A stretch of 64,000 nucleotides of DNA from an uncultured beta proteobacterium. Its GTDB lineage: Bacteria > Pseudomonadota > Gammaproteobacteria > Burkholderiales > Burkholderiaceae_C. Below, piece after piece: positions 17,062 through 52,576 of the stretch. The stretch is taken from contig CAIJPE010000241.1 of the NCBI GenBank assembly GCA_903822435.1, positions 24,327 through 88,326 on the forward strand. Reading direction: 5' to 3'. The stretch's first letter is position 1. Every line of letters starts with the position of its first letter. The notes beneath the pieces were generated by a model, which saw only the letters and a program-made list of their open reading frames with translations, did not search any database and was not told the origin of the DNA. The translations under genes were made by a program, and so were the position numbers.

Positions 17062-17074
17062 GTAGCAAAACTAC
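17062..17074. promoter_or_regulatory. Putative HexR-like operator GTAGCAAAACTAC
   Basis: Inverted repeat GTAG-N5-CTAC, 8 nt upstream of pulA ATG; same sequence at 52478 and, as reverse complement, at 20371. Confidence 0.7.
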
Positions 17075-17149
17075 GGAATCCATGAGCCCGGACGATCCCT
17101 GTGCCGCGGCCATCTCGCGAGAAACCCCGGCTGCCGCGTGGGGGAAACC

Positions 17150-17162
17150 GTACTTAAACTAC
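17150..17162. promoter_or_regulatory. Putative HexR-like operator, one mismatch (GTACTTAAACTAC)
   Basis: Matches the recurrent motif except GTAC half-site; 4 nt before the ATG of the GH13 gene at 17167. Confidence 0.5.
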
Positions 17163-17166
17163 AGAG

Positions 17167-18690
17167 ATGACGGCTCCCCATCTGCCCCATCCCGACATCA
17201 GCCCGGTACCCGTGGACGACCCCGGCAGCAGCTTGCCGCACGGCTGGGAGCGTGGCGCGGTGATGCAGATCTTCGTGCGCAGCTACCAGGACAGCAACGG
17301 CGACGGCATCGGCGACTTGCCGGGCCTCACGTCGCGGCTGGACTACCTGCAGGACCTGGGCGTGCAGGCACTGTGGCTGATGCCCATCACGCCCAGCCAG
17401 GACGGCGACCACGGTTACGCCGTCACCGACTACCGCGCCATCGAACCGGCCTACGGCACGATGGACGACTTCGACGAACTGCTGCGCCAGGCCCACGCGC
17501 GCGGCCTGGGCGTGATCCTGGACTGCGTGATCAACCACAGCGCGGCCCGCCACCCGCTGTTCCTGCACGCCAGCCACTCGCGCGGCAGCCCGTACCGTGA
17601 CTGGTACGTGTGGGCCGACGAGGCGCCGCCGGGCTGGCAGGTCATGGGCGGCGACCCGTGGCGCCGCACGCCCACCGGCTGCTATTACGGCGGGTTTTCG
17701 GCGCACATGCCCGAATTCGACCTGCGCAAGCCCGAAGTGGTGGCCTTTCATGAAGACCACCAGCGTTTCTGGTTCAACCGGGGCGTGGACGGATTGCGCT
17801 TCGACGCCGTGGGCAACCTGTTCGAAAACGGCCCCGATGCCTGGGAATGCCAGCCCGAGAACTACGCGCTGATGGCCCGGATGCGCGCCCTGGCCGACCG
17901 CTACGAGCGCAGGCACATCGTGTGCGAAGCGCCGGGGGACCCACGGGGCTTCGGCGCCGCCGGCGGCGCGGCTTTTGCCTTCGACCTCAACGCCCACATC
18001 GTGAAGGCCGCGCAAGGCAATCTCGAGGCGGTTGAAAAAGTTTGTGCTTACTACATCGATGCGCACCACGGGATGGCGAGCTTCGCTTCCAACCACGACA
18101 GCTTCGCCGGCCGGCGGGTGTGGGACCAGCTGGGCGGCGACCTGCTCGCGTGCAAGCTGGTCGCCGCCACGACCTTGCTGCTGCCGGGCCAGCCTTACCT
18201 CTACTATGGGGAGGAGGTGGGCATGTCGGGGGCCCGCGGCCTGAGTGGCGATGCCGAACTGCGGGCGCCCATGAGTTGGGCCGCCGACCCGCAGCACGCA
18301 GGGTTCACCACCGGCCGGCCCTACCGCGCACTGGCGGCGAACGTCCACACCCACAACGTGGCCCGTGCGGCAGCCGACCCGGCCTCGTTGCTGGCGTTCT
18401 ACAAGGCCATGATCGGGCTGCGCAAGCGGCGGCGCTCGATCGCGCGGGGTCGCTACGAATCGCCGTTCGTCGCCGGCCCGGTGATGGGCTTCCAGCGCTT
18501 CGAGGGCGACGAACGCACCCTGGTACTCATCCACTACGGCCGGGAGCGGGCCTCGGTGCGGGTGCCGGGCCTGAGCCGGGGTGCGCGCCTCGTACCGCTG
18601 CACCCGGCCGGTGCTGCTGCTTTGGCTCCGGCCGGCGGGCGGCTCGACCTGCCGCCCCGCTCGGTCCATGTGTACGAGGTGATCGGATGA
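17167..18690 (+). CDS. GH13 alpha-glucosidase-like enzyme, no signal peptide (predicted cytoplasmic)
   Basis: IFVRSYQDSNGDGIGDLPGLTSRLDYL, VILDCVINHSA, VDGLRFDAVGNLFE, VCEAPGD, ASNHDSF. Confidence 0.9.
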   Translation: MTAPHLPHPDISPVPVDDPGSSLPHGWERGAVMQIFVRSYQDSNGDGIGDLPGLTSRLDYLQDLGVQALWLMPITPSQDGDHGYAVTDYRAIEPAYGTMDDFDELLRQAHARGLGVILDCVINHSAARHPLFLHASHSRGSPYRDWYVWADEAPPGWQVMGGDPWRRTPTGCYYGGFSAHMPEFDLRKPEVVAFHEDHQRFWFNRGVDGLRFDAVGNLFENGPDAWECQPENYALMARMRALADRYERRHIVCEAPGDPRGFGAAGGAAFAFDLNAHIVKAAQGNLEAVEKVCAYYIDAHHGMASFASNHDSFAGRRVWDQLGGDLLACKLVAATTLLLPGQPYLYYGEEVGMSGARGLSGDAELRAPMSWAADPQHAGFTTGRPYRALAANVHTHNVARAAADPASLLAFYKAMIGLRKRRRSIARGRYESPFVAGPVMGFQRFEGDERTLVLIHYGRERASVRVPGLSRGARLVPLHPAGAAALAPAGGRLDLPPRSVHVYEVIG

Positions 18691-20357
18691 GCATGACCCG
18701 CGTCCCTGCCATTGCCTGGGCGGCGCTGGCCTTGGCACTGCCGCGACAACCAGCTGCGGCGCAGCCTGCCGACCCCGCGCCCATCGACATCCGCCCCGTG
18801 GCCGCGAACGCCGCGCACAGTGCCTTGCCGGCCGGGTGGGAGCACGGTGCCTTCATGGAGATCTTCGTGCGGGCCTGGCGCGACACCGATGGCGATGGCA
18901 TCGGCGACCTGCGCGGCGTGACGCAAAGCCTGGACTACCTGCGCGACCTGGGCATCCGCGGCATCTGGCTCATGCCCATCATGAAGAACGCCGACGGCGA
19001 CCACGGCTACGCCACCACCGACCACCGCGCCATCGCCCCCGAATACGGCCGGCTTGCCGACTTCGACGAGCTCATCGCGCAGGCACACCGCCGCGGCATC
19101 GGCGTCATCATGGACTACGTGGTCAACCACAGCGCGGCGGCCAACCCCTTGTTCGTCGAAGCCCGCAAGGGGCCAGGCAACCCCTGGCGCGACTGGTATG
19201 TGTGGTCCGACACTGCGCCGCAGGGCTGGGACATCTGGGGCAAGGACCCCTGGTACCACGTGGGCGGCCAGCCCTGGCTGTTCACCGGCGAGGTCAAGGA
19301 CCTGCCCAAGCCCCCGGCCGGCGCCCGCGACTTCTACTTCGGCACCTTCGGGCCCGACATGCCCGACTTCAACCTGCGCAACCCGGACGTGGTGGCCTAC
19401 CACCGCAGCAGCCTGCGCTTCTGGCTCAACCGCGGGCTGGACGGCTACCGGCTCGACGCCGTGCCGCACCTGATCGAAAACGATGCCGTGCACTGGAACG
19501 ACCAGCCCGAGAGCCGGGCGCTCACCAAGTCGCTGCAGGACCTGATCAAGTCCTACCCGAACCGCATGGTGGTCTGCGAGGCCACGGCCGAGCCGCAGGC
19601 CTACGGCGACCCGGCCGTCTGCGGCGGGGCCTTCGCCTTCGGCTACGTGCACCACATCGTGCAGGCGGCGCGGGGCGACGTGGCCTCGGTGCGGCGAGTG
19701 GCGGACTACTACCTCACCGCCCGCCCCACGATGGCCACCTTCCTGTCCAACCACGACATCTTCGCGGGCCCGCGGCTGTGGGACCAGGTGGCGGGCGACG
19801 AGGCGCGCTACAAGGTCGCCGCGGCCACCTACCTGCTGCAGCCGGGCACGCCCTTCATCTACTACGGCGAGGAAATCGGCCAGGCCGGCGTGCCGGGCCT
19901 GCGCGGCGACTTCCCCATCCGCAGCCCGATGAGCTGGACGGCCGACCCGTTGCGTGCAGGGTTCACCACCGGCAGCCCGTTCCGGCCCGTCTCGCCCAAC
20001 GCGGCCACCCACAACGTGCAGGCCGAGGTGGGCGATCCGCACTCGATCCATCGCTTCTACAAGGCCATGATCGGCCTGCGCAACGCCTGGCCTTCGATCG
20101 CTCGCGGCGGCTACGAGGCGGCGTTCGCCGAGGGTGCCGTGGCGGGCTGGCAGCGGCGCTGGGGCCTCGAGCGTACGGCGGTCGTGATCAACTACGGGAC
20201 TGCCGGCGCGGAAACCCGCGTTCCCGGCCTGCCGCCCGGCGCGCGGCTCAGGCCCGTCTGGCCCGTGGATGCCGCCGCGGCCCGTGCCGACGGCGACGGG
20301 CAGGCTCGCTTGTGGATGGCGCCGCTGTCGGTGCGTGTCTTTGCGATCCAACCTTGA
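18687..20357 (+). CDS. GH13 alpha-glucosidase-like enzyme with signal peptide, paralogue of the upstream gene
   Basis: ATGA overlap with 17167 gene; N-terminal signal (LALPRQPAAAQPA); FVRAWRDTDGDGIGDLRGVTQSLDYLRDLGIRGIWLMPIM; same architecture as preceding ORF. Confidence 0.9.
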   Translation: MSMTRVPAIAWAALALALPRQPAAAQPADPAPIDIRPVAANAAHSALPAGWEHGAFMEIFVRAWRDTDGDGIGDLRGVTQSLDYLRDLGIRGIWLMPIMKNADGDHGYATTDHRAIAPEYGRLADFDELIAQAHRRGIGVIMDYVVNHSAAANPLFVEARKGPGNPWRDWYVWSDTAPQGWDIWGKDPWYHVGGQPWLFTGEVKDLPKPPAGARDFYFGTFGPDMPDFNLRNPDVVAYHRSSLRFWLNRGLDGYRLDAVPHLIENDAVHWNDQPESRALTKSLQDLIKSYPNRMVVCEATAEPQAYGDPAVCGGAFAFGYVHHIVQAARGDVASVRRVADYYLTARPTMATFLSNHDIFAGPRLWDQVAGDEARYKVAAATYLLQPGTPFIYYGEEIGQAGVPGLRGDFPIRSPMSWTADPLRAGFTTGSPFRPVSPNAATHNVQAEVGDPHSIHRFYKAMIGLRNAWPSIARGGYEAAFAEGAVAGWQRRWGLERTAVVINYGTAGAETRVPGLPPGARLRPVWPVDAAAARADGDGQARLWMAPLSVRVFAIQP

Positions 20358-20370
20358 GGGCAGGCGACTT

Positions 20371-20383
20371 GTAGTTTTGCTAC
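20371..20383. promoter_or_regulatory. Putative HexR-like operator GTAGTTTTGCTAC
   Basis: Exact reverse complement of the 17062 site; between the GH13 stop and malK. Confidence 0.68.
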
Positions 20384-20489
20384 GTCTGCCGATCCGTGGA
20401 TACCCCGAACTGGTGCTAACTCCTTGATTTCAATGGGTTCGTCAGCGGCGTCCGGGGCTCTTCCGGATTGTTGGGTGATGGGCGGCCTT

Positions 20490-20502
20490 GTATATTGTCT
20501 AC
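20490..20502. promoter_or_regulatory. Weak HexR-like half-site match GTATATTGTCTAC
   Basis: Degenerate match to the motif, about 40 nt before malK GTG. Confidence 0.3.
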
Positions 20503-20542
20503 AGCCTGGGCCGTCGGCTCGGCAGGAACCCCAGGAGCCCCC

Positions 20543-21647
<1,105 letters not shown>

Positions 21648-21658
<11 letters not shown>

Positions 21659-25284: not shown

Positions 25285-26880
25285 ATGAAGGCGTTGCTCG
25301 CTGCGGCCTGCGCCGCCATGCTGGCGGCCCAGGCGCAGGGACAGACCATGGTCGACTACGCGAATGCCACCGACAAGGCCCTCGCCGGCGTCTTCGAAGC
25401 GCGCGAGCAGGACTGGCGAAATGGCGCGGTGAGCTACCAGGTGCTGGTCGACCGCTTCGCGCCCCCGGCCGACCGCGCCGCCAAGCGCTCGCTGTACCCA
25501 CCGCCCAAGGTGCTGCGCAACTGGGACGAGCTGCCCAAGGCCGGCGCCTACCTGAAGGACGCCAAGGTCTGGAGCCACGAAGTGGATTTCTGGGGCGGCG
25601 ACCTGCCAAGCCTGAAGAGCAGGCTCGACTACGTGCAGCAACTCGGCGTGGACGTGCTCTACCTCAACCCCATCCACCTGGCCTACACCAACCACAAGTA
25701 CGACGCGCTGGACTACCAGCAGGTATCACCCGAATACGGCACGCGGGACGATGTGAAGCAGCTGGCGGCCGAGCTGCACCGCCGTGGCATGAAGCTGGTG
25801 CTGGACGGCGTGTTCAACCACATGGGCCGCAAGGCGCCCGTGTTCCAGCAGGCCGAGGCCGATGTGAAGAGCCCCTACCGCGATTGGTTCGTCTTCGGGC
25901 CGCAGTACGCCGGTGGCGCGCGCGGCTGGGCGAACGTCGAGAACCTGCCCGAGCTCAATCTGGAGAACCCGAAGGTGCGCGAGTACATCTACGGCGGCCG
26001 CGACTCGGTGGTGCGCAGCTGGCTGCGCGACGGCATCGACGGCTGGCGGCTGGACGTGGCCTATGACATCGGATTCGCCTTTCTCGCCGAGCTGACCCAG
26101 GCCGCCCATGCCGAGAAGCCCGGCTCGCTGGTGGTGGGCGAGATCGCCAACTACCCGGCACAGTGGTACCCCTCGGTAGACGGGGTGCTGCAATTCACCC
26201 TGCGCCAGATCCTGCTGGGCACGGCCGCCGGCCGCATCGAGGCTGCCTCTGCCAGCCGCATGATCACCCGCATGATCGTCGACGCCGGCATCGAGAACAT
26301 GCTCAAGAGCTGGGTCTACCTGGACAACCACGACACCGAGCGGCTGGCCACCGTGCTGCCCGACGAACCCGCTCGCCGGCTCGCCCAGGTGCTGCAGTTC
26401 ACGCTGCCCGGTGCGCCCAACCTGTACTACGGCACCGAGCTCGACATGGCCGGCGGCGCCGACCCGGCGATGCGTGCCCCCATGCGCTGGGACCTGGTGC
26501 GCGACGACCACCCCCCGCTGGCCTTCAACCGCCAGCTGCTCGCCATGCACCGCCAGCAGCGTGCCCTGCGCGTGGGCAACTACCGCACCGCCGAGGCCAC
26601 GCGCCTCATCGCCTTCGAGCGCTATACCGACCGCGTGGCCGACAGCGTCATCGTGCTGGTCAACCCCGCTGCCTCGCCCGTGACCGAGACGGTCCTGCTC
26701 ACCGATTCCAAGCTGATGGACGGCGGCCGCCTGATCGACCTGCTGGGCCCCGCCGAGCAGCCGCCCATCCGGGTCTGGTCCTCGCTGCTCCATGTGACGC
26801 TGCCGGCCCACGGCTTTCGCGTGCTCAAGCCCGACCTGGCACCGCCCGGCGGCTACACGCACTACAAGCGCGTGCAGTGA
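25285..26880 (+). CDS. GH13 alpha-amylase/cyclomaltodextrinase-like enzyme with signal peptide
   Basis: VLYLNPIHLAYTNHKYDALDYQQVSPEYG, LVLDGVFNHMG, IDGWRLDVAYD, VVGEI, YLDNHDTERL; 4 nt after malG stop. Confidence 0.9.
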   Translation: MKALLAAACAAMLAAQAQGQTMVDYANATDKALAGVFEAREQDWRNGAVSYQVLVDRFAPPADRAAKRSLYPPPKVLRNWDELPKAGAYLKDAKVWSHEVDFWGGDLPSLKSRLDYVQQLGVDVLYLNPIHLAYTNHKYDALDYQQVSPEYGTRDDVKQLAAELHRRGMKLVLDGVFNHMGRKAPVFQQAEADVKSPYRDWFVFGPQYAGGARGWANVENLPELNLENPKVREYIYGGRDSVVRSWLRDGIDGWRLDVAYDIGFAFLAELTQAAHAEKPGSLVVGEIANYPAQWYPSVDGVLQFTLRQILLGTAAGRIEAASASRMITRMIVDAGIENMLKSWVYLDNHDTERLATVLPDEPARRLAQVLQFTLPGAPNLYYGTELDMAGGADPAMRAPMRWDLVRDDHPPLAFNRQLLAMHRQQRALRVGNYRTAEATRLIAFERYTDRVADSVIVLVNPAASPVTETVLLTDSKLMDGGRLIDLLGPAEQPPIRVWSSLLHVTLPAHGFRVLKPDLAPPGGYTHYKRVQ

Positions 26881-29490: not shown

Positions 29491-30299
29491 TCGATATCCA
29501 CAGCCCCTACCCGCTGAGCCCGGGGCAGATCGCACAGTTCGAACGCGAGGGCTTCATCAAGCTCAAGCAGGTGCTGTCGCCCGAGGCGCTGGCGCACTAT
29601 GGGTCCGAGATCACCCGCCTGACCCTGGCGCTCAACACCCAGGACCGGCCGCTGTCCGAGCGCAGCACCTACGACCGCGCCTTCCTGCAGGTGATGAACC
29701 TGTGGGAGCACAGCGCCCGCGTGCGCGAGTTCGTGTTCGGCCCGCGACTGGGCCGCATCGCGGCGCAGTTGATGCGCGTGTCGGGCGTGCGCCTGTACCA
29801 CGACCAGAGCCTGTACAAGGAGCCGGGCGGCGGCATCACCCCGGCGCATGCCGACCAGACCTACTGGCCGCTGGACAGCGACCGCACCGTCACGGCGTGG
29901 GTCCCCTTGCAGGCCGTTCCGCGAGAGCTCGGCCCGCTGGCCTTCTATGCCGGCAGCCAGCACGTGCCCTTCGGCCGCGACCTGGGCATCGGCGACGAGA
30001 GCGAACGGCAGATCACGGCCCACATGGAAGCGCACGGCTTCGAAATCGTGGACGAGCCCTATGACCTCGGCGAGCTCAGCTTCCACGGTGGCTGGACCTT
30101 CCACAAGGCCGGGCCCAACCGCAGCGACCAACCCCGCTCGGTGATGACGATCATCTACATGGACCACCAGATGAAGCTCGGTGCGTGCACCAGCGACATC
30201 CAGCGCAACGACGCGGCCCAGTGGTGTCCGGGCGCCCGGGTGGGCGAGGTGATCGACACGCCGAAGAACCCGGTCGTCTACCGGTCCTCCATGGGCTGA
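29481..30299 (+). CDS. Phytanoyl-CoA dioxygenase (PhyH) family protein
   Basis: FEREGFIKLKQVLSPEAL, LYHDQSLYKEPGGGITPAHADQTYWPL, FHGGWTFHKAGPNRSDQPR; overlaps the GH13 stop by 10 nt. Confidence 0.87.
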   Translation: MSMIDIHSPYPLSPGQIAQFEREGFIKLKQVLSPEALAHYGSEITRLTLALNTQDRPLSERSTYDRAFLQVMNLWEHSARVREFVFGPRLGRIAAQLMRVSGVRLYHDQSLYKEPGGGITPAHADQTYWPLDSDRTVTAWVPLQAVPRELGPLAFYAGSQHVPFGRDLGIGDESERQITAHMEAHGFEIVDEPYDLGELSFHGGWTFHKAGPNRSDQPRSVMTIIYMDHQMKLGACTSDIQRNDAAQWCPGARVGEVIDTPKNPVVYRSSMG

Positions 30300-30307
30300 T
30301 CCCCGGG

Positions 30308-32617
30308 GTGAGCCGCAACGTGACCCGCAACCTGGCCGCCCGCGCGATGACAGCGGCGGCTTGCGTGCTGGCCATCGCCATGCCATGGGTGGCCCGCGCC
30401 GCCCCCGGGGACCTGACCCGCTGGGTCGATCCCTTCATCGGCACCGATGGCACCGGCCACGTCCTGCCGGGCGCCACGCGGCCTTTCGGCATGGTCGCTC
30501 CGAGCCCCGACAACGCGGGCGGGGGTTGGGACTACACCTCCGGCTATCAGTACCGCGCAACGCGGATCCTGGGATTTTCGAACACCCACATGAGCGGCAC
30601 CGGCATCCCCGACCTGGGCGATGTGCTGTTGCAGCCGGCATCGGGCAGGCTCTGGGACGTGCACACGCAGGACTTCGCCAGCACCTACGACAAACGCACC
30701 GAGCAGGCACACCCCGGCAGCTATGCGGTCACCCTGCACCCGCACGGCGTGCGGGTGGAACTCACCGCCACGCAGCGGGTGGCCCTGCACCGCTACACCT
30801 TCAGGCGCCCGGGGGCGGCGCAGGTGCTGGTGGACCTGCAGCATGGCCTGCAGTACGGCCAGGCCCCGCGGGTCGTGGCGGCCGAGGTGCACACCGACGC
30901 CGCCGGCGAAATCAGCGGCACGCTGCAGGTGAAGGGGTGGACCGAGCGGCAGGTCTCGTTCGTGCTGCGCTTCGACCGGCCCGTGGTGCGCGTGCGGACA
31001 CTGCCGGCGCGGCCGGGCGACAAGGCGCCCCGGCTGCTGCTGGACTTCGAGCTGGGGCGCCAGCCGGTGCTGCAGGCCCGGGTGGCCTTGTCGACCGTGG
31101 ACGTGGCCGGTGCCCGCGCCAACTTGCTCGAGGCTGCGGCCCTGCCGTTCGACCGCGTGCGCGACGACGCGCGAGCCGAATGGAACGGGCTGCTCTCACG
31201 CGCCCGGATCGAAGCGCCAGACCGCTTCAAGCGCATCTTCTACTCCGCGCTGTACCGCTGTTTCATGCACCCCAGCGACATCGCCGACGCGGACGGCCGT
31301 GTGCGCGGCCCCACCGGGGTCGTCATCCAGGCCCCGGGCGGGCGCTACTACAGCACGCTGAGCCTGTGGGACACCTTTCGCGGCCTGCACCCCCTGCTGA
31401 CGCTGCTGGTGCCCGAGCGTGTCGATGGCTTCGTCCAGACCCTGATCGCTCACCAGCAGGCCCAGGGCTACCTGCCCCTTTGGACGGCCTGGGGCCGAGA
31501 GACCCACACGATGATCGGCAACCCGGCGCTTCCGGTCATCGCGGATGCCGTGGCCAAGGGCTTCAGGGGTTTCGACCGTGGGCAGGCCCTGCAGGCCATG
31601 CTGCAGACCGCCACGGCCGAGCGGCCCCGAGCCCCGTCCTGGGCGCAGCACGGCTGGTCACTGCTGGATCAGCACGGCTACCTGCCTTTCGACCTGGCGG
31701 ACGGTGAGGCCGTGAGCAAGACGCTGGAATACGCCATCGGCGACGATGCCGTGGCCCGCGTGGCCCGCGCCGCGGGGCGCACCGACCTGGCCGATCGGTT
31801 TTCGCACCGCGCGCAGTCCTGGCGGCTGCTGTGGGACGAGGCCTCGCAGATGATGCGCGGCAAGGACAGCCAGGGCCGCTGGCGCACGCCCTTCGATCCG
31901 TTGGAACCCACCAGCCCCCTGAACAACCCCGGCGACTACACCGAAGCCAACGCCTGGCAGTACACCCTGGCGCCGGCCCTGCACGACCCGCAGGGCCTGG
32001 TCGCGCAGATGGGCGGGCCGCGGCCCTTCGAGGCCTGGCTGGACCGCTTCTTCACCGTGCAGGCGCCGGGGGACAACAAGCACCTCGGGCAAGAGGCCCT
32101 GATCGGCCAGTACGCGCACGGCAACGAGCCCAGCCACCATGCCGCCTACCTCTACGCCTTCACCGAGGCCCCGTGGAAAGGCCACGCCCTGATCGGGCGG
32201 ATCGTCCGGGACTTCTACGGCAACCGCCCCGACGGCATCACCGGCAACGACGATTGCGGTCAGATGAGTGCCTGGCTGGTCCTGTCCACCCTCGGTTTCT
32301 ACCCGGTGGTAGTGAGCAGCGGCGAGGTGGTGCTGGGCGCCCCGCAGGTGCGGTTCGCGCGGCTGCAACTGGCCGGCGGGCACGTGTTGCGCATCCGCGC
32401 GGAGGGCTTCGGCCCCGGGCACACCTGGGCCTCGCGGGCCACGCTCGACGGCGTGGCGCTCGACCCCGTGGCCGTGCGCCATGCCGACCTGCTTCGTGGT
32501 GGCGAACTGGTCTTCACGCTGAAGCCCCCCCGGGGTTTCCACCCGGGCCCTGGACACTCGGCGGGCCGCCGTGCCGCTACCATTGCCGGGCCCGTTACCC
32601 GACGGGCTGGAGACTGA
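30308..32617 (+). CDS. GH92 family glycosyl hydrolase (alpha-mannosidase-like), secreted
   Basis: VDPFIGTDGTGHVLPGATRPFGMVAPSPDN, FSNTHMSGTGIPDLGDVLLQP, LWDTFRGLHPLLTLL, GNDDCGQMSAWLVLSTLGFYPV are GH92 hallmarks; exact start among GTG/ATG codons near 30308-30347 uncertain. Confidence 0.9.
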   Translation: MSRNVTRNLAARAMTAAACVLAIAMPWVARAAPGDLTRWVDPFIGTDGTGHVLPGATRPFGMVAPSPDNAGGGWDYTSGYQYRATRILGFSNTHMSGTGIPDLGDVLLQPASGRLWDVHTQDFASTYDKRTEQAHPGSYAVTLHPHGVRVELTATQRVALHRYTFRRPGAAQVLVDLQHGLQYGQAPRVVAAEVHTDAAGEISGTLQVKGWTERQVSFVLRFDRPVVRVRTLPARPGDKAPRLLLDFELGRQPVLQARVALSTVDVAGARANLLEAAALPFDRVRDDARAEWNGLLSRARIEAPDRFKRIFYSALYRCFMHPSDIADADGRVRGPTGVVIQAPGGRYYSTLSLWDTFRGLHPLLTLLVPERVDGFVQTLIAHQQAQGYLPLWTAWGRETHTMIGNPALPVIADAVAKGFRGFDRGQALQAMLQTATAERPRAPSWAQHGWSLLDQHGYLPFDLADGEAVSKTLEYAIGDDAVARVARAAGRTDLADRFSHRAQSWRLLWDEASQMMRGKDSQGRWRTPFDPLEPTSPLNNPGDYTEANAWQYTLAPALHDPQGLVAQMGGPRPFEAWLDRFFTVQAPGDNKHLGQEALIGQYAHGNEPSHHAAYLYAFTEAPWKGHALIGRIVRDFYGNRPDGITGNDDCGQMSAWLVLSTLGFYPVVVSSGEVVLGAPQVRFARLQLAGGHVLRIRAEGFGPGHTWASRATLDGVALDPVAVRHADLLRGGELVFTLKPPRGFHPGPGHSAGRRAATIAGPVTRRAGD

Positions 32618-33964: not shown

Positions 33965-33975
<11 letters not shown>
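33367..33975 (+). CDS. 2-hydroxychromene-2-carboxylate isomerase / DsbA-like thioredoxin-fold protein
   Basis: [46 protein letters not shown] and [28 protein letters not shown]. Confidence 0.9.
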
Positions 33976-34867
<892 letters not shown>

Positions 34868-38788: not shown

Positions 38789-39535
38789 ATGGTCATGAGC
38801 ATGGCGCATTGGCTCGGCGAAGGCGGGCGATTCTTCAACCCCCATGCCGTGGTGCGGGAGGTGCCGCTGATGGCCGGCGCGCACTGCGTGGTGATCGACA
38901 ATGCGCTGGCCGACCCCGCCGCCATGCGCCTGTGGGCTGCCACGCAGCCCTTTCTGCCGCCGGTCGGTTACCCGTATCCCGGCCTGGTGAGCGAGGTGCC
39001 CCAGGATCTCTCCCAGCGCGTGGCCGAGTGTTTCGCCGCCCATGCCCGCAGCGCGCTTCAGGGGCGACGCACGCTGGATGTCGCGGTGCGCCTGTCGCTC
39101 ATCACCACGCCGCCCGCGGAGCTCGCCCCCGTCCAGTGGCTGTGCCATCGCGACCGCTTCGTGCACGGTCGCCCCGACATCCTTTTTGCCGCCGGGGTGC
39201 TGTACCTCTTCGAAGACCCGGCGCTGGGCGGCACGAGCTTCTACCGGCCCCGCAAGCCGCCCGCCGAGACCGAGCAACTGGTGGCCGACAGCCAGGCGCT
39301 GGATGCCCATGCCTTCAGCGCCCGCCATGGCTGGCAGCCCGGGTACATGAACGGGAGCAACGCCCACTTCGAACGCGTGGCGCAGGTGCCGGCTGCGTGG
39401 AACCGCATGATCTTCTACGACGGCGGGCTGTTTCATTCCGCCGATGTCGGCGAGCCGGCGCGCATGAGCGCCGACGCCCTGCAGGGGCGGCTGACCCTCA
39501 ACAGCTTCATCACCTGCCGCAAGGCTGCGACCTGA
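38789..39535 (+). CDS. DUF6445-like family protein (2OG-oxygenase-like fold suspected)
   Basis: CHRDRFVHGRPDILFAAGVLYLFEDPALGGTSFYRPR and MIFYDGGLFHSADV; type of protein often found near tryptophan-halogenase-like genes. Confidence 0.7.
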   Translation: MVMSMAHWLGEGGRFFNPHAVVREVPLMAGAHCVVIDNALADPAAMRLWAATQPFLPPVGYPYPGLVSEVPQDLSQRVAECFAAHARSALQGRRTLDVAVRLSLITTPPAELAPVQWLCHRDRFVHGRPDILFAAGVLYLFEDPALGGTSFYRPRKPPAETEQLVADSQALDAHAFSARHGWQPGYMNGSNAHFERVAQVPAAWNRMIFYDGGLFHSADVGEPARMSADALQGRLTLNSFITCRKAAT

Positions 39536-39563
39536 GCGCCCGCGGCGGACGTTCCTGCACCCA

Positions 39564-40097
39564 TCAGCAGTCGTCGACGACTGCCTTGCTGGCGCCGGAG
39601 ATCTGCGCCTTGCAGCGGTCCGAAGCGCGGGCCTGGTCGCGCAAGGCCTGCTCCTTCATGCGCTTGGCCTCCTGCTCGCGGGCGGCGGCGAACTTCTTCG
39701 CGTTGTCCAGGTCGGCTTCCAGGCCGGGTGCCGCCTTCGGCCGCTCGATGGTGGCGCTGCGGTCGGTGCCCACCTTCAGGAAAGTGTAGAAGATCTCCTT
39801 GGCGCCGCTGGGCCACACCGCGGTGACGTCCGGCGTGCGGATGTTGTCGGTCTTGCCGTCGCTCTGGTAGGTGCGGGTCACCGGGGCCGTGCCGATGGGC
39901 TGGCCGCCCTCGAACAAGGTCGCGCCCTCGGGACTGGTGGTGTAGGTGAGCATGGCCGAGGTCGGCGGTGGGCCGCCGGCGCAGGCGGCCAGGCCCATGA
40001 CGGCGGCCAGTGCCGCCAGGCGGAGCATCGGGGTCAGTCGGTGCATCGGGGCGATCGACGAGGTCATGGACGGGTTGATCGACGGCTTGATGGACAT
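39564..40097 (-). CDS. Putative lipoprotein with PEGA-like segment
   Basis: Lipobox-like GLAACAGG; TTSPEGATLFEGGQPIGTAPV resembles PEGA domain; start codon uncertain among several ATGs. Confidence 0.7.
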   Translation of the reverse strand: MSIKPSINPSMTSSIAPMHRLTPMLRLAALAAVMGLAACAGGPPPTSAMLTYTTSPEGATLFEGGQPIGTAPVTRTYQSDGKTDNIRTPDVTAVWPSGAKEIFYTFLKVGTDRSATIERPKAAPGLEADLDNAKKFAAAREQEAKRMKEQALRDQARASDRCKAQISGASKAVVDDC

Positions 40098-40116
40098 TGG
40101 GTTCTCCCCAAAGTGG

Positions 40117-41637
40117 CTAGGCGGCCATGCGGCCGGGTGCGGCGCAGTTATCGGCGATGAAGCGGCTGTGCGTGGGCATGACTTCCACGCAGGCCTGGAT
40201 CACGCCTTCCACTTCGGCCAGGTACTCGGCAATCTCGGCTTCGGTCCGCAGGCCGGCCAGCGGGTGGCTCGACGCGGGCTGGATGCGCTGCCCGTGCAGC
40301 ACCTGCAGCCAGCTCAGCTTGGTGAACAACTCATTGCCTTCGCGGACCACGCGGCCATGGGCCTTGAACAGCGCGATGCGCTCGGCCAGGCTCTGCGGGA
40401 TCTCCATCTCGCGGCAGTAATTCCAGAACGGCGAATCGGTGCGCTCGGTGGCCTTGTAGTGCAGGATGATGAAGTCCCGCACCCACTCGTACTCCTGGCT
40501 CATGATGCGGTTGTACTGGTCGCGGTCGGCGGCGGCGAAGTCGGGCCCCGGGAACATCGTCAGCAGGTGCGCGATGCCCATTTGCACGAGGTGGATGCTG
40601 GTGGATTCCAGCGGCTCGATGAAGCCGCAGGCCAGGCCGATGGACACCACGTTCTTGTTCCACGCCTTCTTGCGCTTGCCCGTGACGAAGCGGATGGGCC
40701 GCGGGTCGGCCAGCGGGGCGCCATCCAGGTTGCCCAGCAGCACGGCCGTGGCTTCGTCTTCGCTGATGTACTTGCTGGAGAACACGTGGCCGTTGCCGAT
40801 GCGGTGCTGCAGCGGAATGCGCCACTGCCAGCCCGCCTGCCGGGCCGTGGAGCGCGTGTAGGGCGTGATCTCCTTGACCGATGCGCAGGGGACGGCCACC
40901 GCGCGGTCGCAGGGCAGCCAGTGCGACCAGTCTTCGTAGCCGGTCTTCAGCGCCCCTTCGATCAGCAGGGCGCGGAAGCCCGAGCAGTCGATGAAGAGCT
41001 CGCCCTCGATGCGCTGGCCCGACTGCAGCATGACCGAGGTGACGTGGCCATCGCCTTCGCGCGTGGCCACCTCGGTGATCTTGCCTTCGATGCGCTGCAC
41101 GCCCCGCGCTTCGCTGTAGCCGCGCAGGAACTTGGCATACAGCGAGGCATCGAAATGAAAGGCGTAAGCGATCTGCGACAGCGGCGAATTGGGCAGGTCC
41201 ATGCGGGGCCGCATGAATCGGTTCTGCGCACACGCCGCGGTGTTGATGGAGTAGTTCTCCAGCGGCCCGGCCTTGCCGGCCTGGTGCATCTTCAGCCAGT
41301 ACTGGTGGAAGTCGACCGTGGCGTTTTCCTGCCCGATCACGCCGAAGCCATGGATGTAGCGGTCGCCGAGCCGGGCCCAGTTGACGAACTCGATGCCGAG
41401 CTTGAAGGATCCCTGCGTCTGCTTGACGAACTCGTCTTCGTCGAAGTCGAGCAGCCGGTTGAACAGCGAGATCATCGGGATGGTGGCCTCGCCCACGCCG
41501 ATGGTTCCGATGTCGTCCGACTCCACCAGCGTGATCGGGTACTGCCCCTGGAGCACCTTCGCCAGGGCCGCTGCGGTCATCCAGCCGGATGTGCCGCCGC
41601 CGATGATCACCACGCGCAATTGCTGCTTCGTATCCAT
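40117..41637 (-). CDS. Flavin-dependent tryptophan halogenase family protein
   Basis: VVIIGGGTSGWMTAAALAKVL; GVGEATIP; SFKLGIEFVNW (lysine at catalytic position); GWQWRIPLQHR (WxWxIP); GLACGFIEPLESTSIHLVQ. Confidence 0.95.
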   Translation of the reverse strand: MDTKQQLRVVIIGGGTSGWMTAAALAKVLQGQYPITLVESDDIGTIGVGEATIPMISLFNRLLDFDEDEFVKQTQGSFKLGIEFVNWARLGDRYIHGFGVIGQENATVDFHQYWLKMHQAGKAGPLENYSINTAACAQNRFMRPRMDLPNSPLSQIAYAFHFDASLYAKFLRGYSEARGVQRIEGKITEVATREGDGHVTSVMLQSGQRIEGELFIDCSGFRALLIEGALKTGYEDWSHWLPCDRAVAVPCASVKEITPYTRSTARQAGWQWRIPLQHRIGNGHVFSSKYISEDEATAVLLGNLDGAPLADPRPIRFVTGKRKKAWNKNVVSIGLACGFIEPLESTSIHLVQMGIAHLLTMFPGPDFAAADRDQYNRIMSQEYEWVRDFIILHYKATERTDSPFWNYCREMEIPQSLAERIALFKAHGRVVREGNELFTKLSWLQVLHGQRIQPASSHPLAGLRTEAEIAEYLAEVEGVIQACVEVMPTHSRFIADNCAAPGRMAA

Positions 41638-41709
41638 GACGGTGGAAGGTGTGAGGCGTTGCCGGTAGAACGATTATGGGCAGGCACCCGGTCGGCTTGG
41701 CAAGCCCAA

Positions 41710-41748
41710 AATGAAAAGCCCCTCACCGACGGGCGTCGGCAAAGGGCT
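41710..41748 (-). terminator. Putative intrinsic terminator after the TonB receptor gene
   Basis: Minus strand AGCCCTTTGCCGAC-GCCC-GTCGGTGAGGGGCT hairpin followed by TTTCATTTT; 17 nt past the TonB stop. Confidence 0.6.
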
Positions 41749-41764
41749 CGGAGCGCTCGGGCCC

Positions 41765-44563
41765 TTACTGCAGCTTGTAGCTCAGCTTGAAGCCGTAGCT
41801 CGCACCGGTGTTGTTCTCGGTGTTGAGAGAGCCATCGGCCTTCAGTTCGCGGTAGGTCGGCTTGTTCAGGTTGTTGCCTTCGACGCGGAAGCCCAGGCCC
41901 TTCAGCGGACCTTCCTGGAACTCGTAGCCGATCTGCGCCGACACCCAGGAAGAGCCCTGGATGTTGATCAGCGCCGGGTAGCCCCCCACCGTGGTGTTGG
42001 TGACGCTGCCGACGTAATCGGAGCGGTAGTTGTCGGCCACGAAGGCGCTGAATCCATTGCGTTCGTAGTACAGCACCAGCTTGGCGTTCAGCTTGGACAG
42101 GCCAGGCAGCGGCATGCTCAAGCCGCCGCTGGGCACCTGCTGGTTGGGGTTCAGGCCGATCAGGTTGGGCAGCACGACCGAGCTCATCGTGTTGGAGTAA
42201 CTGGTCTCGATGCCGAAGCCGTTGAGCATCGGGGTCATCAGGTTGAACGGCAAGGACGCCGCCAGCTCGATGCCCTTCAAGTCCCCGCCGGTGCCGTTCA
42301 AGGTGGTGGTGAAGGTGCCGATCGTGCCGCCCGGCGGTACCGTCAGGCCCAGCGACTGCGCGTAGGACGCGAAGTCGAAGGCGGTGTTGGTGGCCGGCGT
42401 GATGTAGGTGTCCAGCTTCTTGTAGAACGCCGCCGCGCTGAAGTAGGCCTTGTTGCTGACGTACTTTTCATACGACAGGTCCAGCGCCGTGGCCTTGAAG
42501 GGCTTGAGGTTCGGGTTGCCCGCCGAGCCGACGAAGCGGCCGAAGGTGGCATTGGACGCATTGGTGTCCACCGCCGCCGCGAAGGAGTTGCGCATGTCGG
42601 TCAGGGTTGGCCGCGCGATCTGCTCGGACAGCCCCAAGCGCAGGAAGCTGCCGTTGCCGAAGTCGCCCTTCAGGTTGAGCGATGGCAACACGTCGGTGTA
42701 CTTGGTGCCGTCGGTCGTGAAGCCACCGGCCGGGTTGTTCAACGTCACCGCCGACGTCACCTGTGCGCGGTAGCCCGCCGAAGACTGGTCGGTGTTGACG
42801 ATCTGCGCGCCCACGCTGCCAGTGATCGGGATGCCCGCGTACTGGGTCTCCAGGTTGGCCTTGAGGTAGGCCGTGGTGACCTTCTCGGTCACCGTCCAGG
42901 ATTTCGACAGGATGTCGTCGTTGTACTTGCGGATCACCACCGCGCCCGGCCACAGGCTGGCTTGCGGATCGAAGGTGAGCAGGTTCAGGCCCGTGCCGCC
43001 GACGTTGTTCTGCACGTAGGCGCCGGCCGGCAACGGGATGCGGTCGTAGCCGCCGTTGGTGGCCGAGCCGAGCACGCCTTCGTCGGTGATGCGGTCCTTG
43101 CTGCGCTTGGAGAAGTTGCCGCCGAACTGAAGGTCGGTGAAGACGCTGCCCTCGGCGAGGTCACGGCGAAAGTCCAGGCGCACCGCATCGAGCTTGTCGG
43201 TGATGGTCGGGCCCTTGATGTAGCCGGCCTGCGGCACGGTGCGGCCGGCGTAGGGGCCGGTGGTGTACTGCACGCCGCTCCAGCCCGACTGGTCGCGCAC
43301 GGCGATCTGGGTGGGGTCGGTATAGGCCCCGGGGTTGCCCAAGGTGAACTGGGGTGTGCCTCCGCCATTCGTGAAGCTCAGGGTGTCGGCCGTGGTGATG
43401 CCGGCATAGGCCTCGATGTCCTTCTCGACGCGGGTTGCCTTGTTGTGGTTGAAGTCCAGCGACCCGGTCCAGGCGTCACCGAACTTGAGCTTGGACTTCC
43501 AGCCGGCCGACTCGATCTTGTCGTCGTCGAAGATGTTTTCGCTGTAGGCGATCAGGCCGCCCGGCGCGAGTTGGAAGGTGCCGCTCTGGACCACGCCGCC
43601 CACCACCGTGGCATTGGTGATGTCGCCGTTGTTGGTGCCGGCGTTGGCCTTCATCTTCTTCAGCGCCGTGTTGATCTTGGCGGAGTAGATGTCGATCTGG
43701 GTCGAGAAATTCTTGTTCGGCTTGTAGCTGAGGATCGCGGCCAGGCCGTCGCGCTTGTCGGTGTTGCGGTCGCTCTCGTAGCCCAGGCCGCCGCCGAAGG
43801 GGACGTTGATGCCGGTGACGGTGGTGCCGTCGGTCTTGGTGATGGTGGGGCTGTTGCCCCAGCTGCCATTCACCAGGGAGTTCGACGTGCCGTCGGCGTG
43901 CACGTAGCCCACCGCCACGCCCAGCTTGCGGTCGAGGAACTGGTCGATGTAGGTGAAGCTGTAGCGGTGGCCCTTGCCGGTGTCGGGCAGGCCCTGGCCG
44001 GTCTTGGTCTCGGCCGCCGTGGCGCCGATCACGCGCGAGCCGAAGGCCAGCGGGTCGATCAGCAGGTTGTCGATGGTGCCGGCCAGGCCGGCCGTCATCA
44101 GCGAGGCGTCGGAGGTCTTGTAGACGGTGGCGCCGGCGATCAGTTCGGCCGGGTACACGCTCAGGTCCACGCCGCGGCTGTCGCCCGTGCTGGTCTGTTC
44201 ACGCCCGTTGAGCAGGTAGCCGTTGAAGTCGGGGCCCAGGCCGCGGATGGTGACGTTCGTGGCGTTGCCGTTGCGGTCGCGCTGGGTGGTCACACCTGGC
44301 AGGCGGGCCAGCGATTCCGCGATGCTGGTGTCGGGCAGCTTGCCGATGTCTTCGGCCGAGATGGCTTCGACCACCCCGTCGGCGTTCTTCTTGACGCTGA
44401 TGGCGCTTTCGATGCCGCGGCGAATGCCCGTGACGGTGATCTGCTGCGCTGCGGGCGCGTCCTGGGCCAGGACCGTGCCCGAGGCAGACAACAAAGTGGC
44501 CACGGCAGCGGCCACCGGGGTGGCGCGCAGCCAGGGGCCGCGGGTGGAGGTCGGTTTCTTCAT
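41765..44563 (-). CDS. TonB-dependent receptor, probable maltodextrin/alpha-glucan importer
   Basis: Signal peptide; QITVTGIRRGIESAISVKKNADGVVEAISAEDIGKLPDTSIAESLARLPGVTTQRDRNGNATNVTIRGLGPDFN plug; ends YGFKLSYKLQ; next to halogenase and amylase. Confidence 0.94.
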   Translation of the reverse strand: MKKPTSTRGPWLRATPVAAAVATLLSASGTVLAQDAPAAQQITVTGIRRGIESAISVKKNADGVVEAISAEDIGKLPDTSIAESLARLPGVTTQRDRNGNATNVTIRGLGPDFNGYLLNGREQTSTGDSRGVDLSVYPAELIAGATVYKTSDASLMTAGLAGTIDNLLIDPLAFGSRVIGATAAETKTGQGLPDTGKGHRYSFTYIDQFLDRKLGVAVGYVHADGTSNSLVNGSWGNSPTITKTDGTTVTGINVPFGGGLGYESDRNTDKRDGLAAILSYKPNKNFSTQIDIYSAKINTALKKMKANAGTNNGDITNATVVGGVVQSGTFQLAPGGLIAYSENIFDDDKIESAGWKSKLKFGDAWTGSLDFNHNKATRVEKDIEAYAGITTADTLSFTNGGGTPQFTLGNPGAYTDPTQIAVRDQSGWSGVQYTTGPYAGRTVPQAGYIKGPTITDKLDAVRLDFRRDLAEGSVFTDLQFGGNFSKRSKDRITDEGVLGSATNGGYDRIPLPAGAYVQNNVGGTGLNLLTFDPQASLWPGAVVIRKYNDDILSKSWTVTEKVTTAYLKANLETQYAGIPITGSVGAQIVNTDQSSAGYRAQVTSAVTLNNPAGGFTTDGTKYTDVLPSLNLKGDFGNGSFLRLGLSEQIARPTLTDMRNSFAAAVDTNASNATFGRFVGSAGNPNLKPFKATALDLSYEKYVSNKAYFSAAAFYKKLDTYITPATNTAFDFASYAQSLGLTVPPGGTIGTFTTTLNGTGGDLKGIELAASLPFNLMTPMLNGFGIETSYSNTMSSVVLPNLIGLNPNQQVPSGGLSMPLPGLSKLNAKLVLYYERNGFSAFVADNYRSDYVGSVTNTTVGGYPALINIQGSSWVSAQIGYEFQEGPLKGLGFRVEGNNLNKPTYRELKADGSLNTENNTGASYGFKLSYKLQ

Positions 44564-44664
44564 GGGGTGGTGTCTCCAGGGACTCACGTGGGCAGGTTTA
44601 CCGCCGGCGCGGGCTGTGAGTGCCCACGCCGATCCGTCGATCGGGTTCGTTCAGCCCGCACTGT

Positions 44665-44677
44665 GTATCAAAACTAG
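44665..44677. promoter_or_regulatory. Degenerate HexR-like operator GTATCAAAACTAG
   Basis: Two outer-half mismatches to GTAGCAAAACTAC; 101 nt upstream of TonB receptor ATG. Confidence 0.35.
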
Positions 44678-44828: not shown

Positions 44829-44841
44829 GTAGCCAAACTAC
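44829..44841. promoter_or_regulatory. Putative HexR-like operator GTAGCCAAACTAC (within TTGTAGCCAAACTACATT)
   Basis: Exact GTAG-N5-CTAC with flanking T/A extending the palindrome; 86 nt upstream of the amylase ATG. Confidence 0.7.
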
Positions 44842-50468: not shown

Positions 50469-51298
50469 TCGGCGGGCAAGCCGGCCGACGGGGCGGCCGA
50501 AACCGGCGCCACGGGCTGTACCTCGAAGGCCAGGGTCACGAAGCGGCTTTCCCATTGATCGGCCAGCTGTTCGGACAACCGCAGGTCGGTGCCGCGCAGG
50601 ACCCAGCGACCGGGCAGCGGCACCGGCACACTGAGGCGGCCCTGGGTGTCGGTGCGGCGCCAGATGCCGATCGGGCTGCTCTCGCTGCGCAGCTCGATGG
50701 CCTGGCCGGGTAGCGGCTGGCCGTCGCGCAGCACCTGGGCCACCAGCGTGGCGCCGGGCTTCAAGGCGCCGCCGTCGCTTTCGATCCGAATGTCCATGCC
50801 CATGTCGGTGGCGGCGGTGGGCGCGGCGCCCACGGTGCCGAATTCGATGCGGGCATGCTTGGTGTAGCGCTCGTGCCACTTCACGCCCCGCCGCTGCATG
50901 TCGATCCAGGCCTCGCGCACGGCCGGCGGCGGCTGGATGTCCTTGAAGTAGATGGCCACCTTCTCGGGCGGCATGTCGACCTCGAAGGGCGTGAGCTGGG
51001 CCCAGCAGCCCTGGGCCCGTTGTGGGGCCTTGAGCACGAGCGAAGCCGGTTCGTTGCGCAGCGGCTGCAGCGGCACGCGGTGCGTTTCGCCCCGGGGGCT
51101 GCTGACACGGCAGCCTTGACGCGCCAGGTATTCGCGCCCAATGCCGCTGTCGTAGCGCGGATACTGGTTGCCGGTGCCCAGGGCCAGCAACGGCTCGCCG
51201 TTCGCCGCGGGCAGGGGCTCGAACCAGGTGTCGTGGGCGTGGGCGCAGGTGGCGGCACAGGCCAGTGCCGCGGCCAATCCAAGGTGATGAGGCTTCAT
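50366..51298 (-). CDS. DUF4198-like periplasmic protein
   Basis: Signal peptide then AHDTWFEPLPA; PGATLVAQVLRDGQPLPGQAIELRSE...TDTQGRLSVPVPLPGRWVLRGTDLR. Confidence 0.85.
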   Translation of the reverse strand: MKPHHLGLAAALACAATCAHAHDTWFEPLPAANGEPLLALGTGNQYPRYDSGIGREYLARQGCRVSSPRGETHRVPLQPLRNEPASLVLKAPQRAQGCWAQLTPFEVDMPPEKVAIYFKDIQPPPAVREAWIDMQRRGVKWHERYTKHARIEFGTVGAAPTAATDMGMDIRIESDGGALKPGATLVAQVLRDGQPLPGQAIELRSESSPIGIWRRTDTQGRLSVPVPLPGRWVLRGTDLRLSEQLADQWESRFVTLAFEVQPVAPVSAAPSAGLPADQNGSHLTLNALSMNQTAATTAITSDPPVSTARR

Positions 51299-51372
51299 GC
51301 AGGCAGGTACGCGGCGGCGGCCCGCCTGGATGCGTGCCGCGGCCTGCCGCCGGTCGTTCGCCGTCCGAGGCC

Positions 51373-52425
51373 CTATCCCGAGTGCTGCTCCAGGGCCAGT
51401 TTCGCGCCGCCCAGGGCGGCCAGGGTGTCGGTGATCAGCGCCGTGGGGATGGCCTGCAGGTAGGCCTGGAAGCGGCCCTTGGCCTCGAAGCGCTCGCGGA
51501 AGGCCGACTCGAAGAAGCGCTCTCCCAGGCGTGGCACGATGCCCCCGCCGATGTACATGCCCCCCCGCGCGCCCAGCACCAGGGCCACGTTGCCGGCAAA
51601 GCTGCCCAGAAGCGCGCAGAAGGTGTCGACCGTGCGGCTGCAGACGTCGTCGGTGCCGGCCAGGGCGCTGTCGACGATGTCGCCGGCTGTCAGTGTGACC
51701 GCCGGCACGCCCAGCACGGCCGCCACGCCCCGGTGCAGCGTGGGCAGCCCGATGCCCGACAGCAGGCGCTCTGCCGACACGTGGGCGTGTTCGCGGCGTA
51801 CGGCGGCCAGCAGGGCGCTTTCGAAGTCGTCGGCGGCCGACAGCGTGGCATGACCGCCTTCGCCCGGTATGGCGGCCCATCCATGCCGCGTGGGCACGAG
51901 GCCGGCCACGCCCAGGCCGGTACCCGGGCCGATCACGGCCAGCGTGCCGCGCGGCGTTTCGGCCGTCGCGGTGGCGGCCCGGCTCGGGATCGGCCTGACC
52001 TGGTGCCCTTCAAGACCCGGCAGCGACAGCGCCAGGGCCTCGAAATCATTGAGGATCAGCAGTTCGGCCAGGTTCAGCGCTTGCCGGGTCTGCGCGCGAG
52101 AGAAGACCCAGCCGCTGTTGGTCAGGCCGATGAGGTCGCTGCCCACGGCCGTGGCGACCGCAAAGGCAGCCGCGCCAGGCGGTGCGAAAGCCGGGCCCAG
52201 CGCCTGGGCCAGGCCCGCCAGGTACGCGCGAGCCGCCTCGGCCGGGCCTGCGTGGTCGGCCGCCCGCAGGGTGCTCACGTGCTGGGCGTGCGCCTGCCCT
52301 TCGGCCAGCCAGCCGAAGCGGGCATTGGTGCCACCGATGTCGGCGACCAGCCAGGGGCGGGGCAGGGCCGGGGCAGAGCCGGCGGCGGGCAAGGGGAGGG
52401 GGCTCGTGGCGGTCAGGGGGTTCAT
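51373..52425 (-). CDS. glk: Glucokinase
   Basis: LVADIGGTNARFGWL, LLILNDFEALALSLP, VIGPGTGLGVAGL, IPGEGGHATLSA, GGMYIGGGIVPRL. Confidence 0.93.
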   Translation of the reverse strand: MNPLTATSPLPLPAAGSAPALPRPWLVADIGGTNARFGWLAEGQAHAQHVSTLRAADHAGPAEAARAYLAGLAQALGPAFAPPGAAAFAVATAVGSDLIGLTNSGWVFSRAQTRQALNLAELLILNDFEALALSLPGLEGHQVRPIPSRAATATAETPRGTLAVIGPGTGLGVAGLVPTRHGWAAIPGEGGHATLSAADDFESALLAAVRREHAHVSAERLLSGIGLPTLHRGVAAVLGVPAVTLTAGDIVDSALAGTDDVCSRTVDTFCALLGSFAGNVALVLGARGGMYIGGGIVPRLGERFFESAFRERFEAKGRFQAYLQAIPTALITDTLAALGGAKLALEQHSG

Positions 52426-52477
52426 CCGTCGAGGGCCGCCCGACGGGTCGGGCGCCCGGTGGTGGGTGCGCGGCACG

Positions 52478-52490
52478 GTAGCAAAACTAC
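52478..52490. promoter_or_regulatory. Putative HexR-like operator GTAGCAAAACTAC
   Basis: Identical to the 17062 site; 52 nt upstream of glk ATG. Confidence 0.7.
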
Positions 52491-52563
52491 AGGGTGCCAA
52501 CAAGGGTTCAAACGAGAGGTTCGGCGTGTTCTGGGGCTGTCCGTATCGATGGCGTGGATGTCC

Positions 52564-52576
52564 GTAGTCAAGCTAC
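52564..52576. promoter_or_regulatory. Putative HexR-like operator GTAGTCAAGCTAC
   Basis: GTAG-N5-CTAC palindrome; 29 nt upstream of the first plausible ATG of the glk-rpiR fusion. Confidence 0.67.

What the first reader, a model, noticed from the sequence alone, without database searches (positions are those of the whole stretch)
17062..52576. A recurrent GTAG-N5-CTAC palindrome marks a putative HexR-type regulon across the maltodextrin locus
Seen directly: GTAGCAAAACTAC (17062, 52478), its reverse complement (20371), GTAGCCAAACTAC (44829) and GTAGTCAAGCTAC (52564). Weaker versions are at 17150, 20490 and 44665. All lie in intergenic DNA before pulA, the GH13 tandem, malK, the TonB receptor, the amylase, glk and glk-rpiR. 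Established: HexR (RpiR family) operators in proteobacteria resemble TGTAATWWWATTACA, the same 15-bp geometry. Inference: the fused glucokinase-RpiR protein controls maltodextrin uptake and hydrolysis as well as hexose metabolism. No LacI-type MalR gene or operator was seen. Under a simple 70% GC model fewer than one exact hit would be expected in 64 kb (rough estimate).
Basis: partly seen in the sequence, partly recalled or inferred. Interest (0 to 1): 0.85.

Follow-up and report, generated by a model that had tools for sequence, protein, structure and literature searches.

The report
Starch regulon of glucokinase-fused RpiR regulator
A Rubrivivax-group bacterium appears to control its starch, maltodextrin and glycogen genes through one short DNA switch, read by a regulator physically joined to a glucose-phosphorylating enzyme, while a sister regulator with a one-letter-different switch controls glucose-6-phosphate oxidation.

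Summary
GTAG-N5-CTAC occurs 5 times in the window (0.07 expected) and only 7 times in the whole 6.07 Mb genome. The sixth copy lies between divergent glgP and glgC-glgA, which extends the regulon to glycogen.

The motif is a footprint in otherwise unalignable DNA between glk and glk-rpiR, and recurs at pulA/GH13, malK/glgP, TonB receptor/amylase and glgP/glgC across many Burkholderiales genera. It tracks the fused Glk-RpiR gene: median site score at glgC is 22.6 in 14 congeners with the fusion and -2.7 in 11 without, although most of the latter keep standalone HexR.

Corrections: (1) the operator has the G-type half-site TGTAGT/ACTACA that Pseudomonas RccR binds in vitro; (2) a standalone HexR is also present and its sites are the A-type GTAA-N5-TTAC (zwf, ppc), so the paralogs appear to divide targets by one base per half-site; (3) four of seven KDPG-contact residues are replaced in the fused protein, so KDPG is probably not its effector; (4) weak site 20490 is not distinguishable from background.

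No binding or expression data exist here. Repression and effector are inferred.

The parts
17062..17074 (+). operator GTAGCAAAACTAC between divergent pulA (-) and GH13a (+), 8 bp from the pulA start codon
   Evidence: PWM trained on relatives 17.4; homologous pulA/GH13 intergenic sites in relatives
17150..17162 (+). weaker operator GTACTTAAACTAC, 4 bp before the GH13a ATG
   Evidence: PWM 17.3, rank 6 in window
20371..20383 (+). operator GTAGTTTTGCTAC about 160 bp upstream of malK
   Evidence: PWM 21.3; same position in relatives (L186, L237, L240)
   Evidence: PWM 9.4, below a coding-sequence chance hit
44665..44677 (+). borderline site GTATCAAAACTAG upstream of the TonB receptor
   Evidence: PWM 12.9, rank 7
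44829..44841 (+). operator GTAGCCAAACTAC between TonB receptor (-) and secreted amylase (+)
   Evidence: PWM 25.6; conserved TBDR/amylase sites
52478..52490 (+). operator GTAGCAAAACTAC, glk-proximal site of the glk / glk-rpiR intergenic region
   Evidence: nearly invariant in congeners, with conserved downstream ACAAG
52564..52576 (+). operator GTAGTCAAGCTAC, glk-rpiR-proximal site
   Evidence: conserved in most congeners
52684..54642 (+). glk-rpiR: glucokinase (res 9-320) fused to RpiR HTH + SIS (res ~334-595), proposed regulator
   Evidence: Pfam Glucokinase, HTH_6, SIS; NCBIfam PRK14101 780 bits, below its 920 cut-off
51373..52365 (-). standalone glucokinase, divergent from glk-rpiR (exact start unresolved)
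   Evidence: tblastn; PF02685 4.7e-95
14300..17053 (-). pullulanase pulA
17167..18690 (+). GH13a
18780..20357 (+). GH13b (approximate start)
20543..21658 (+). malK; followed by malE, malF, malG (to 25280) and GH13c (25285-26880)
41765..44587 (-). TonB-dependent receptor, TIGR01782
44928..47570 (+). secreted GH13 amylase with Glucodextran_C domain; start at ATG 44928 (N-terminus resembles a signal peptide)

Best explanation
GTAG-N5-CTAC (full consensus TGTAGYNNNRCTACA) is the operator of the glucokinase-RpiR fusion protein. The protein binds it through its RpiR helix-turn-helix domain, regulates its own gene and the divergent glk, and co-regulates starch breakdown and uptake (pulA, GH13s, malKEFG, TonB receptor, secreted amylase) and glycogen turnover (glgP / glgC-glgA). 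A standalone HexR in the same cell reads GTAA-N5-TTAC at zwf and ppc, so the two paralogs are kept apart by one base per half-site and by different recognition helices (SQPTVIRFCRSLGCE versus SKPTVVRFCRSIGYD). By analogy with HexR and RccR the apo-protein probably represses and a sugar phosphate releases it. Because its KDPG pocket is rebuilt while the phosphate-binding serines 183 and 185 remain, the effector is more likely another sugar phosphate (glucose-6-P made by the attached or neighbouring glucokinase, or glucose-1-P) than KDPG. Shown by comparative evidence: motif, targets, regulator-operator co-occurrence, paralog split, residue changes. Inferred: physical binding, sign of regulation, effector, any role of the kinase domain in sensing.
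For: Rarity and placement: 7 copies in 6.07 Mb, 6 of them in alpha-glucan intergenic DNA; of the candidate sites listed genome-wide, the top 8 by matrix score are all in alpha-glucan intergenic DNA. Autoregulatory footprint next to the fusion in 20 of 21 congeners, standing out of unconserved DNA. Targets recur across genera: of 80 site regions fetched, most fall between divergent pulA/GH13, malK/glgP, TBDR/amylase, TBDR/glk and glgP/glgC, plus further amylases, a cyclomaltodextrinase, pullulanases and a LamB porin. Co-occurrence in 301 family genomes: mean 3.9 refined sites with the fusion (n=68) versus 0.51 without (n=233), Fisher p about 1e-28 for at least 2 sites. Orthologous glgC promoter: 14 of 14 fusion congeners score at least 16.4, 11 fusion-less have median -2.7. 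Paralog split: 17 of 21 standalone-HexR loci have an A-type palindrome at zwf and none a G-type one; both A-type palindromes of this genome lie at zwf and in the ppc/hemC gap. Natural experiment: genus g165 (G200, G283) has the fusion and no HexR, and in G200 the zwf/edd operator is G-type. An RpiR protein is known to bind the same half-site (RccR, SPR; PMC5489143). KDPG residues: HexR SHRHSSS in 20 of 21, fusion YFRRSSI.
Against: No binding or expression data. Genomes are related, so the co-occurrence p-values overstate independence. One fusion-less draft genome (G010, 78% complete) keeps a near-site at glgC, and four fusion genomes in the family have no refined site. The fusion scores below the curated cut-offs of both HexR and PRK14101. 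Repression is not shown; positions relative to mapped transcription starts are unknown.
Confidence: 0.84

Rival explanations
1. The standalone HexR, not the fused protein, reads these sites.
For: Both are RpiR proteins and the operators differ by one base per half-site.
Against: Congeners that keep HexR but lack the fusion lack the sites, including at the orthologous glgC promoter. HexR loci carry A-type sites at zwf, never G-type.
Confidence: 0.06
2. An unrelated maltose regulator (LacI-type MalR or another) that is inherited with the locus reads the palindrome.
For: Most known proteobacterial maltose regulators are not RpiR; the rest of the genome was not screened for LacI genes.
Against: No LacI-type gene among the window ORFs examined. 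Two copies flank the fusion gene itself in most congeners. The half-site is that of an experimentally tested RpiR protein (PMC5489143). In Paraburkholderia the fusion sits with a G-type site at zwf and no starch locus was seen in the flanks.
Confidence: 0.06
3. The fused protein acts mainly as an activator of the alpha-glucan genes rather than a repressor.
For: HexR is reported as a dual regulator in Shewanella (own knowledge of the literature); the fusion-proximal site lies about 100 bp upstream of the start codon; RccR shows opposite KDPG effects on two site types (PMC5489143, PMC10810197).
Against: The pulA and GH13a sites lie 4-8 bp from the start codons, a position typical of repression; the glk-proximal site shows a weak -35/-10-like pattern around it (my reading).
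Confidence: 0.25
4. The palindrome is a chance or structural sequence (terminator, repeat).
For: Inverted symmetry.
Against: 0 of 100 shuffles reach five copies; conserved at orthologous promoters across genera; no stem longer than 4-5 bp.
Confidence: 0.01

Closest known systems
RccR of Pseudomonas (PMC5489143, PMC10810197)
   Same: RpiR protein, HexR paralog in the same cell, 15-bp operator TGTAGT-N3-ACTACA, two paralogs dividing carbon metabolism
   Different: Targets are aceEF, glyoxylate shunt and gluconeogenesis; KDPG sensor with S139/H148/H164/S188; not fused to an enzyme; also uses a 28-bp site. The fused protein is a separate monophyletic group
HexR regulon of Proteobacteria (PMC5343134; Leyn et al. 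2011, not readable here)
   Same: HTH_6 + SIS, 15-bp palindrome geometry
   Different: HexR controls zwf, edd, eda, glk, pykA via TGTAAT-type sites; here a standalone HexR keeps zwf and the fused paralog has starch and glycogen genes
Bifunctional transcriptional regulator/glucokinase, NCBIfam NF010701 (PRK14101)
   Same: Identical domain order glucokinase-HTH_6-SIS
   Different: Score 780 versus cut-off 920. In Paraburkholderia loci it lies downstream of zwf, with TGTAGTTAAACTACA before zwf, not in a starch regulon
LacI-family MalR and MalT maltose regulons
   Same: Control of maltodextrin uptake and hydrolysis
   Different: Different protein families and operators; none seen in the window

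Membership tests
RpiR family (HTH_6 + SIS) | N-terminal HTH_6 and C-terminal SIS domain | tested here: met
   PF01418 1e-18, PF01380 7e-15
HexR proper | NCBIfam PRK11302 score over its 296-bit cut-off | tested here: not met
   236.5 bits; forms a clade separate from standalone HexR, support 0.97 each
HexR proper | Operator at zwf/edd | tested here: not met
   zwf here carries the A-type site linked to standalone HexR; met only in G200 (HexR absent) and in Paraburkholderia
HexR / RccR | KDPG-contact residues S139 H148 R152 H164 S183 S185 S188 | tested here: not met
   Y F R R S S I; four of seven replaced. K270 and R277 not compared
RccR | 15-bp TGTAGT-N3-ACTACA operator | tested here: met
   PMC5489143. 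By sequence only; binding not tested
RccR | aceEF / glyoxylate-shunt targets | tested here: not met
   none of the 7 exact genome sites lies at such genes
PRK14101 bifunctional regulator/glucokinase | Fused domain order | tested here: met
PRK14101 bifunctional regulator/glucokinase | Curated score cut-off 920 bits | tested here: not met
   780.5 bits
Active glucokinase (E. coli type) | NDFTA, EGGH and ER-LSGPG motifs as in E. coli Glk | tested here: met
   alignment to 1q18/9duc; activity not tested
LacI-type MalR regulon | LacI gene in the locus | tested here: not met
   none among the window ORFs examined; rest of genome not tested

The most novel reading that the evidence does not exclude
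The fused glucokinase is itself part of the sensor: the RpiR half has lost the KDPG pocket, and its DNA binding is gated by glucose or by glucose-6-phosphate produced in cis by the attached kinase, so that a catalytic hexokinase and its regulon are one molecule measuring glucose released from starch. Meanwhile the paralog HexR, one operator base away, reports Entner-Doudoroff flux by KDPG.
Probability: 0.35. Interest if true: 0.8.

Novelty: new variant of a known kind. Interest (0 to 1): 0.62.

Why it matters
It gives a natural system for three questions. How do two coexisting RpiR paralogs stay apart by one operator base per half-site? How does a KDPG sensor lose its ligand and take over another pathway? 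Can an enzyme fused to a repressor act as its metabolite sensor? It also predicts the starch and glycogen regulon of many Burkholderiales (Rubrivivax, Roseateles, Pelomonas, Mitsuaria, Ideonella, Inhella and Undibacterium loci), and each prediction can be tested with one gene deletion or one EMSA.

Tried and rejected
1) Helical phasing of the two operators between glk and glk-rpiR (looping): spacings 77-281 bp, no periodicity (p 0.09-0.5 over seven periods); rejected. 2) Structural reading of the fusion from an AlphaFold model: mean pLDDT 64, pTM 0.44 with 13 sequences; not used. 3) Literature on fused Glk-RpiR or on RpiR control of maltodextrin or glycogen: nothing relevant found; Leyn et al. 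2011 is not held, so its beta-proteobacterial HexR motifs could not be checked. 4) Site-rich genomes without the fusion: G196 (9 hits) is made of dispersed GTAGCAGAGCTAC/GTAGCCGAGCTAC copies, which look unrelated.

Full report
OBSERVATION. GTAG-N5-CTAC is present at all five stated coordinates; shuffles give 0.07 expected. In the whole 6.07 Mb draft genome (426 contigs) the pattern occurs 7 times. By hand, 5 or more of 7 falling in a 64-kb stretch (1.05% of the genome) has a probability of about 3e-9. The sixth site (C125:8740) lies between glgP (-) and glgC-glgA (+), with a second near-site at 8903. The seventh (C219:914) lies inside an open frame and has a low matrix score.

GENES. Pfam and NCBIfam place pulA, GH13s, malK and malEFG, a TonB-Xanth-Caul receptor, a secreted amylase with a Glucodextran_C domain, a standalone glk and a 652-aa Glk-HTH_6-SIS fusion around the sites. 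The genome encodes one other protein with HTH_6: a standalone HexR on contig C58, on the same strand as and downstream of zwf.

FOOTPRINT. Between glk and glk-rpiR, 20 of 21 congeners keep at least one site (up to one mismatch in the two half-sites), usually GGTAGCAAAACTACA near glk and TGTAGTGAAGCTACA near the fusion. In an alignment of 12 species these are the only long conserved islands; the first is followed by a conserved ACAAG. The named relatives are Rubrivivax, Roseateles, Pelomonas, Mitsuaria, Ideonella, Inhella, Undibacterium and others.

REGULON IN RELATIVES. I fetched 80 site regions and labelled them with the window's own proteins. The sites fall mostly between divergent pulA/GH13, malK/glgP, TBDR/amylase, TBDR/glk, glk/glk-rpiR and glgP/glgC; most of the rest precede other amylases, a cyclomaltodextrinase, pullulanases, a LamB porin and a second malEF. 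A few look like chance (near FimV-like, SRAP or aldolase genes). Among the genome-wide candidates within one mismatch of TGTARYNNNRYTACA or with exact GTAG-N5-CTAC, the top eight by score are all in alpha-glucan intergenic DNA.

WHICH PROTEIN. Over 301 genomes of the family, the refined pattern GTAGYNNARCTAC averages 3.9 per genome with the fusion and 0.51 without (inputs). The genomes are related, so the p-value is indicative only. A sharper test uses one orthologous promoter: upstream of glgC all 14 fusion-bearing congeners score at least 16.4 (median 22.6), while 11 fusion-less congeners have median -2.7; the exception is one 78%-complete draft at 16.5.

TWO PARALOGS, TWO OPERATORS. Relaxing the pattern to GTAR-N5-YTAC adds only two sites to the genome, both A-type: GTAATTTTGTTAC 22 bp before zwf and GTAACCAGGTTAC between ppc and hemC. 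In 21 standalone-HexR loci, 17 carry an A-type palindrome upstream of zwf and none carries a G-type one. Genus g165 has the fusion but no HexR, and in G200 the zwf/edd operator is G-type. In Paraburkholderia the fusion lies downstream of zwf, with TGTAGTTAAACTACA before zwf, so the G-type preference of the fusion looks older than its starch regulon (inference). The recognition helices differ consistently: SQPTVIRFCRSLGCE in the fusion, SKPTVVRFCRS[IV]GYD in HexR.

LITERATURE. Pseudomonas RccR, a HexR paralog, binds TGTAGTTTTACTACT and TGTAGTAAAACTACA at aceE (PMC5489143), the same half-site as here. Its KDPG contacts are S139, H148, R152, H164, S183, S185, S188, K270 and R277 (PMC10810197). 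The first seven residue numbers match PDB chain 8ju9, which I therefore take to be RccR.

EFFECTOR. HexR keeps S-H-R-H-S-S-S in 20 of 21 loci; the fusion has Y-F-R-R-S-S-I here, and Y-F-R-R variants through most of the clade. The phosphate-binding serines 183 and 185 are kept. KDPG is therefore an unlikely effector; another sugar phosphate is plausible. In RccR, alanine at 139, 148 or 164 abolished DNA binding (PMC10810197), so these changes may also be structural. The glucokinase half keeps the E. coli motifs NDFTA and EGGH.

MECHANISM. Shown by comparative evidence: operator, targets, regulator identity, paralog split. Inferred: repression by the apo-protein and release by a sugar phosphate. 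The pulA and GH13a sites adjoin their start codons, which favours repression; activation at some promoters is not excluded. Looping by fixed helical spacing is not supported.

LIMITS. No binding or expression data; draft genomes; phylogenetic dependence; RegPrecise and Leyn et al. 2011 could not be consulted, so part of this regulon may already be catalogued there.

Noticed in passing
window 4935-7424 (-): 829-aa ORF joins an AraC-type regulator (AraC_binding_2 + HTH_18) to an acetamidase/formamidase domain: a second enzyme-regulator fusion in the same window, next to a separate FmdA gene and an ABC transporter.
   Followed up: no
G000 C318:12749 (L349:3250): The only other A-type palindrome of the genome lies between ppc (PEP carboxylase) and hemC, suggesting ppc as a HexR target.
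   Followed up: partly
window 38789-44587: TonB receptor, Trp_halogenase-family gene and DUF6445 gene recur as a group beside the starch genes in many relatives.
   Followed up: partly
L278 (G200 C14:2169) and L370: Genus g165 keeps the fusion, lacks standalone HexR, and in G200 has a G-type operator between edd and zwf.
   Followed up: partly
L326 (G010), L321 (G035), L322 (G026): Fusion-less congeners show possible decayed remnants of the operator upstream of glgC (for example TGTAGTTTGACTATG), consistent with recent loss of the regulator.
   Followed up: partly
window 33965-34867 (-): Caspase-domain (Peptidase_C14) protein beside the carbohydrate genes.
   Followed up: no
window 30185-32617 (+): GH92 family glycosidase inside the maltodextrin locus, without a G-type site.
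   Followed up: no
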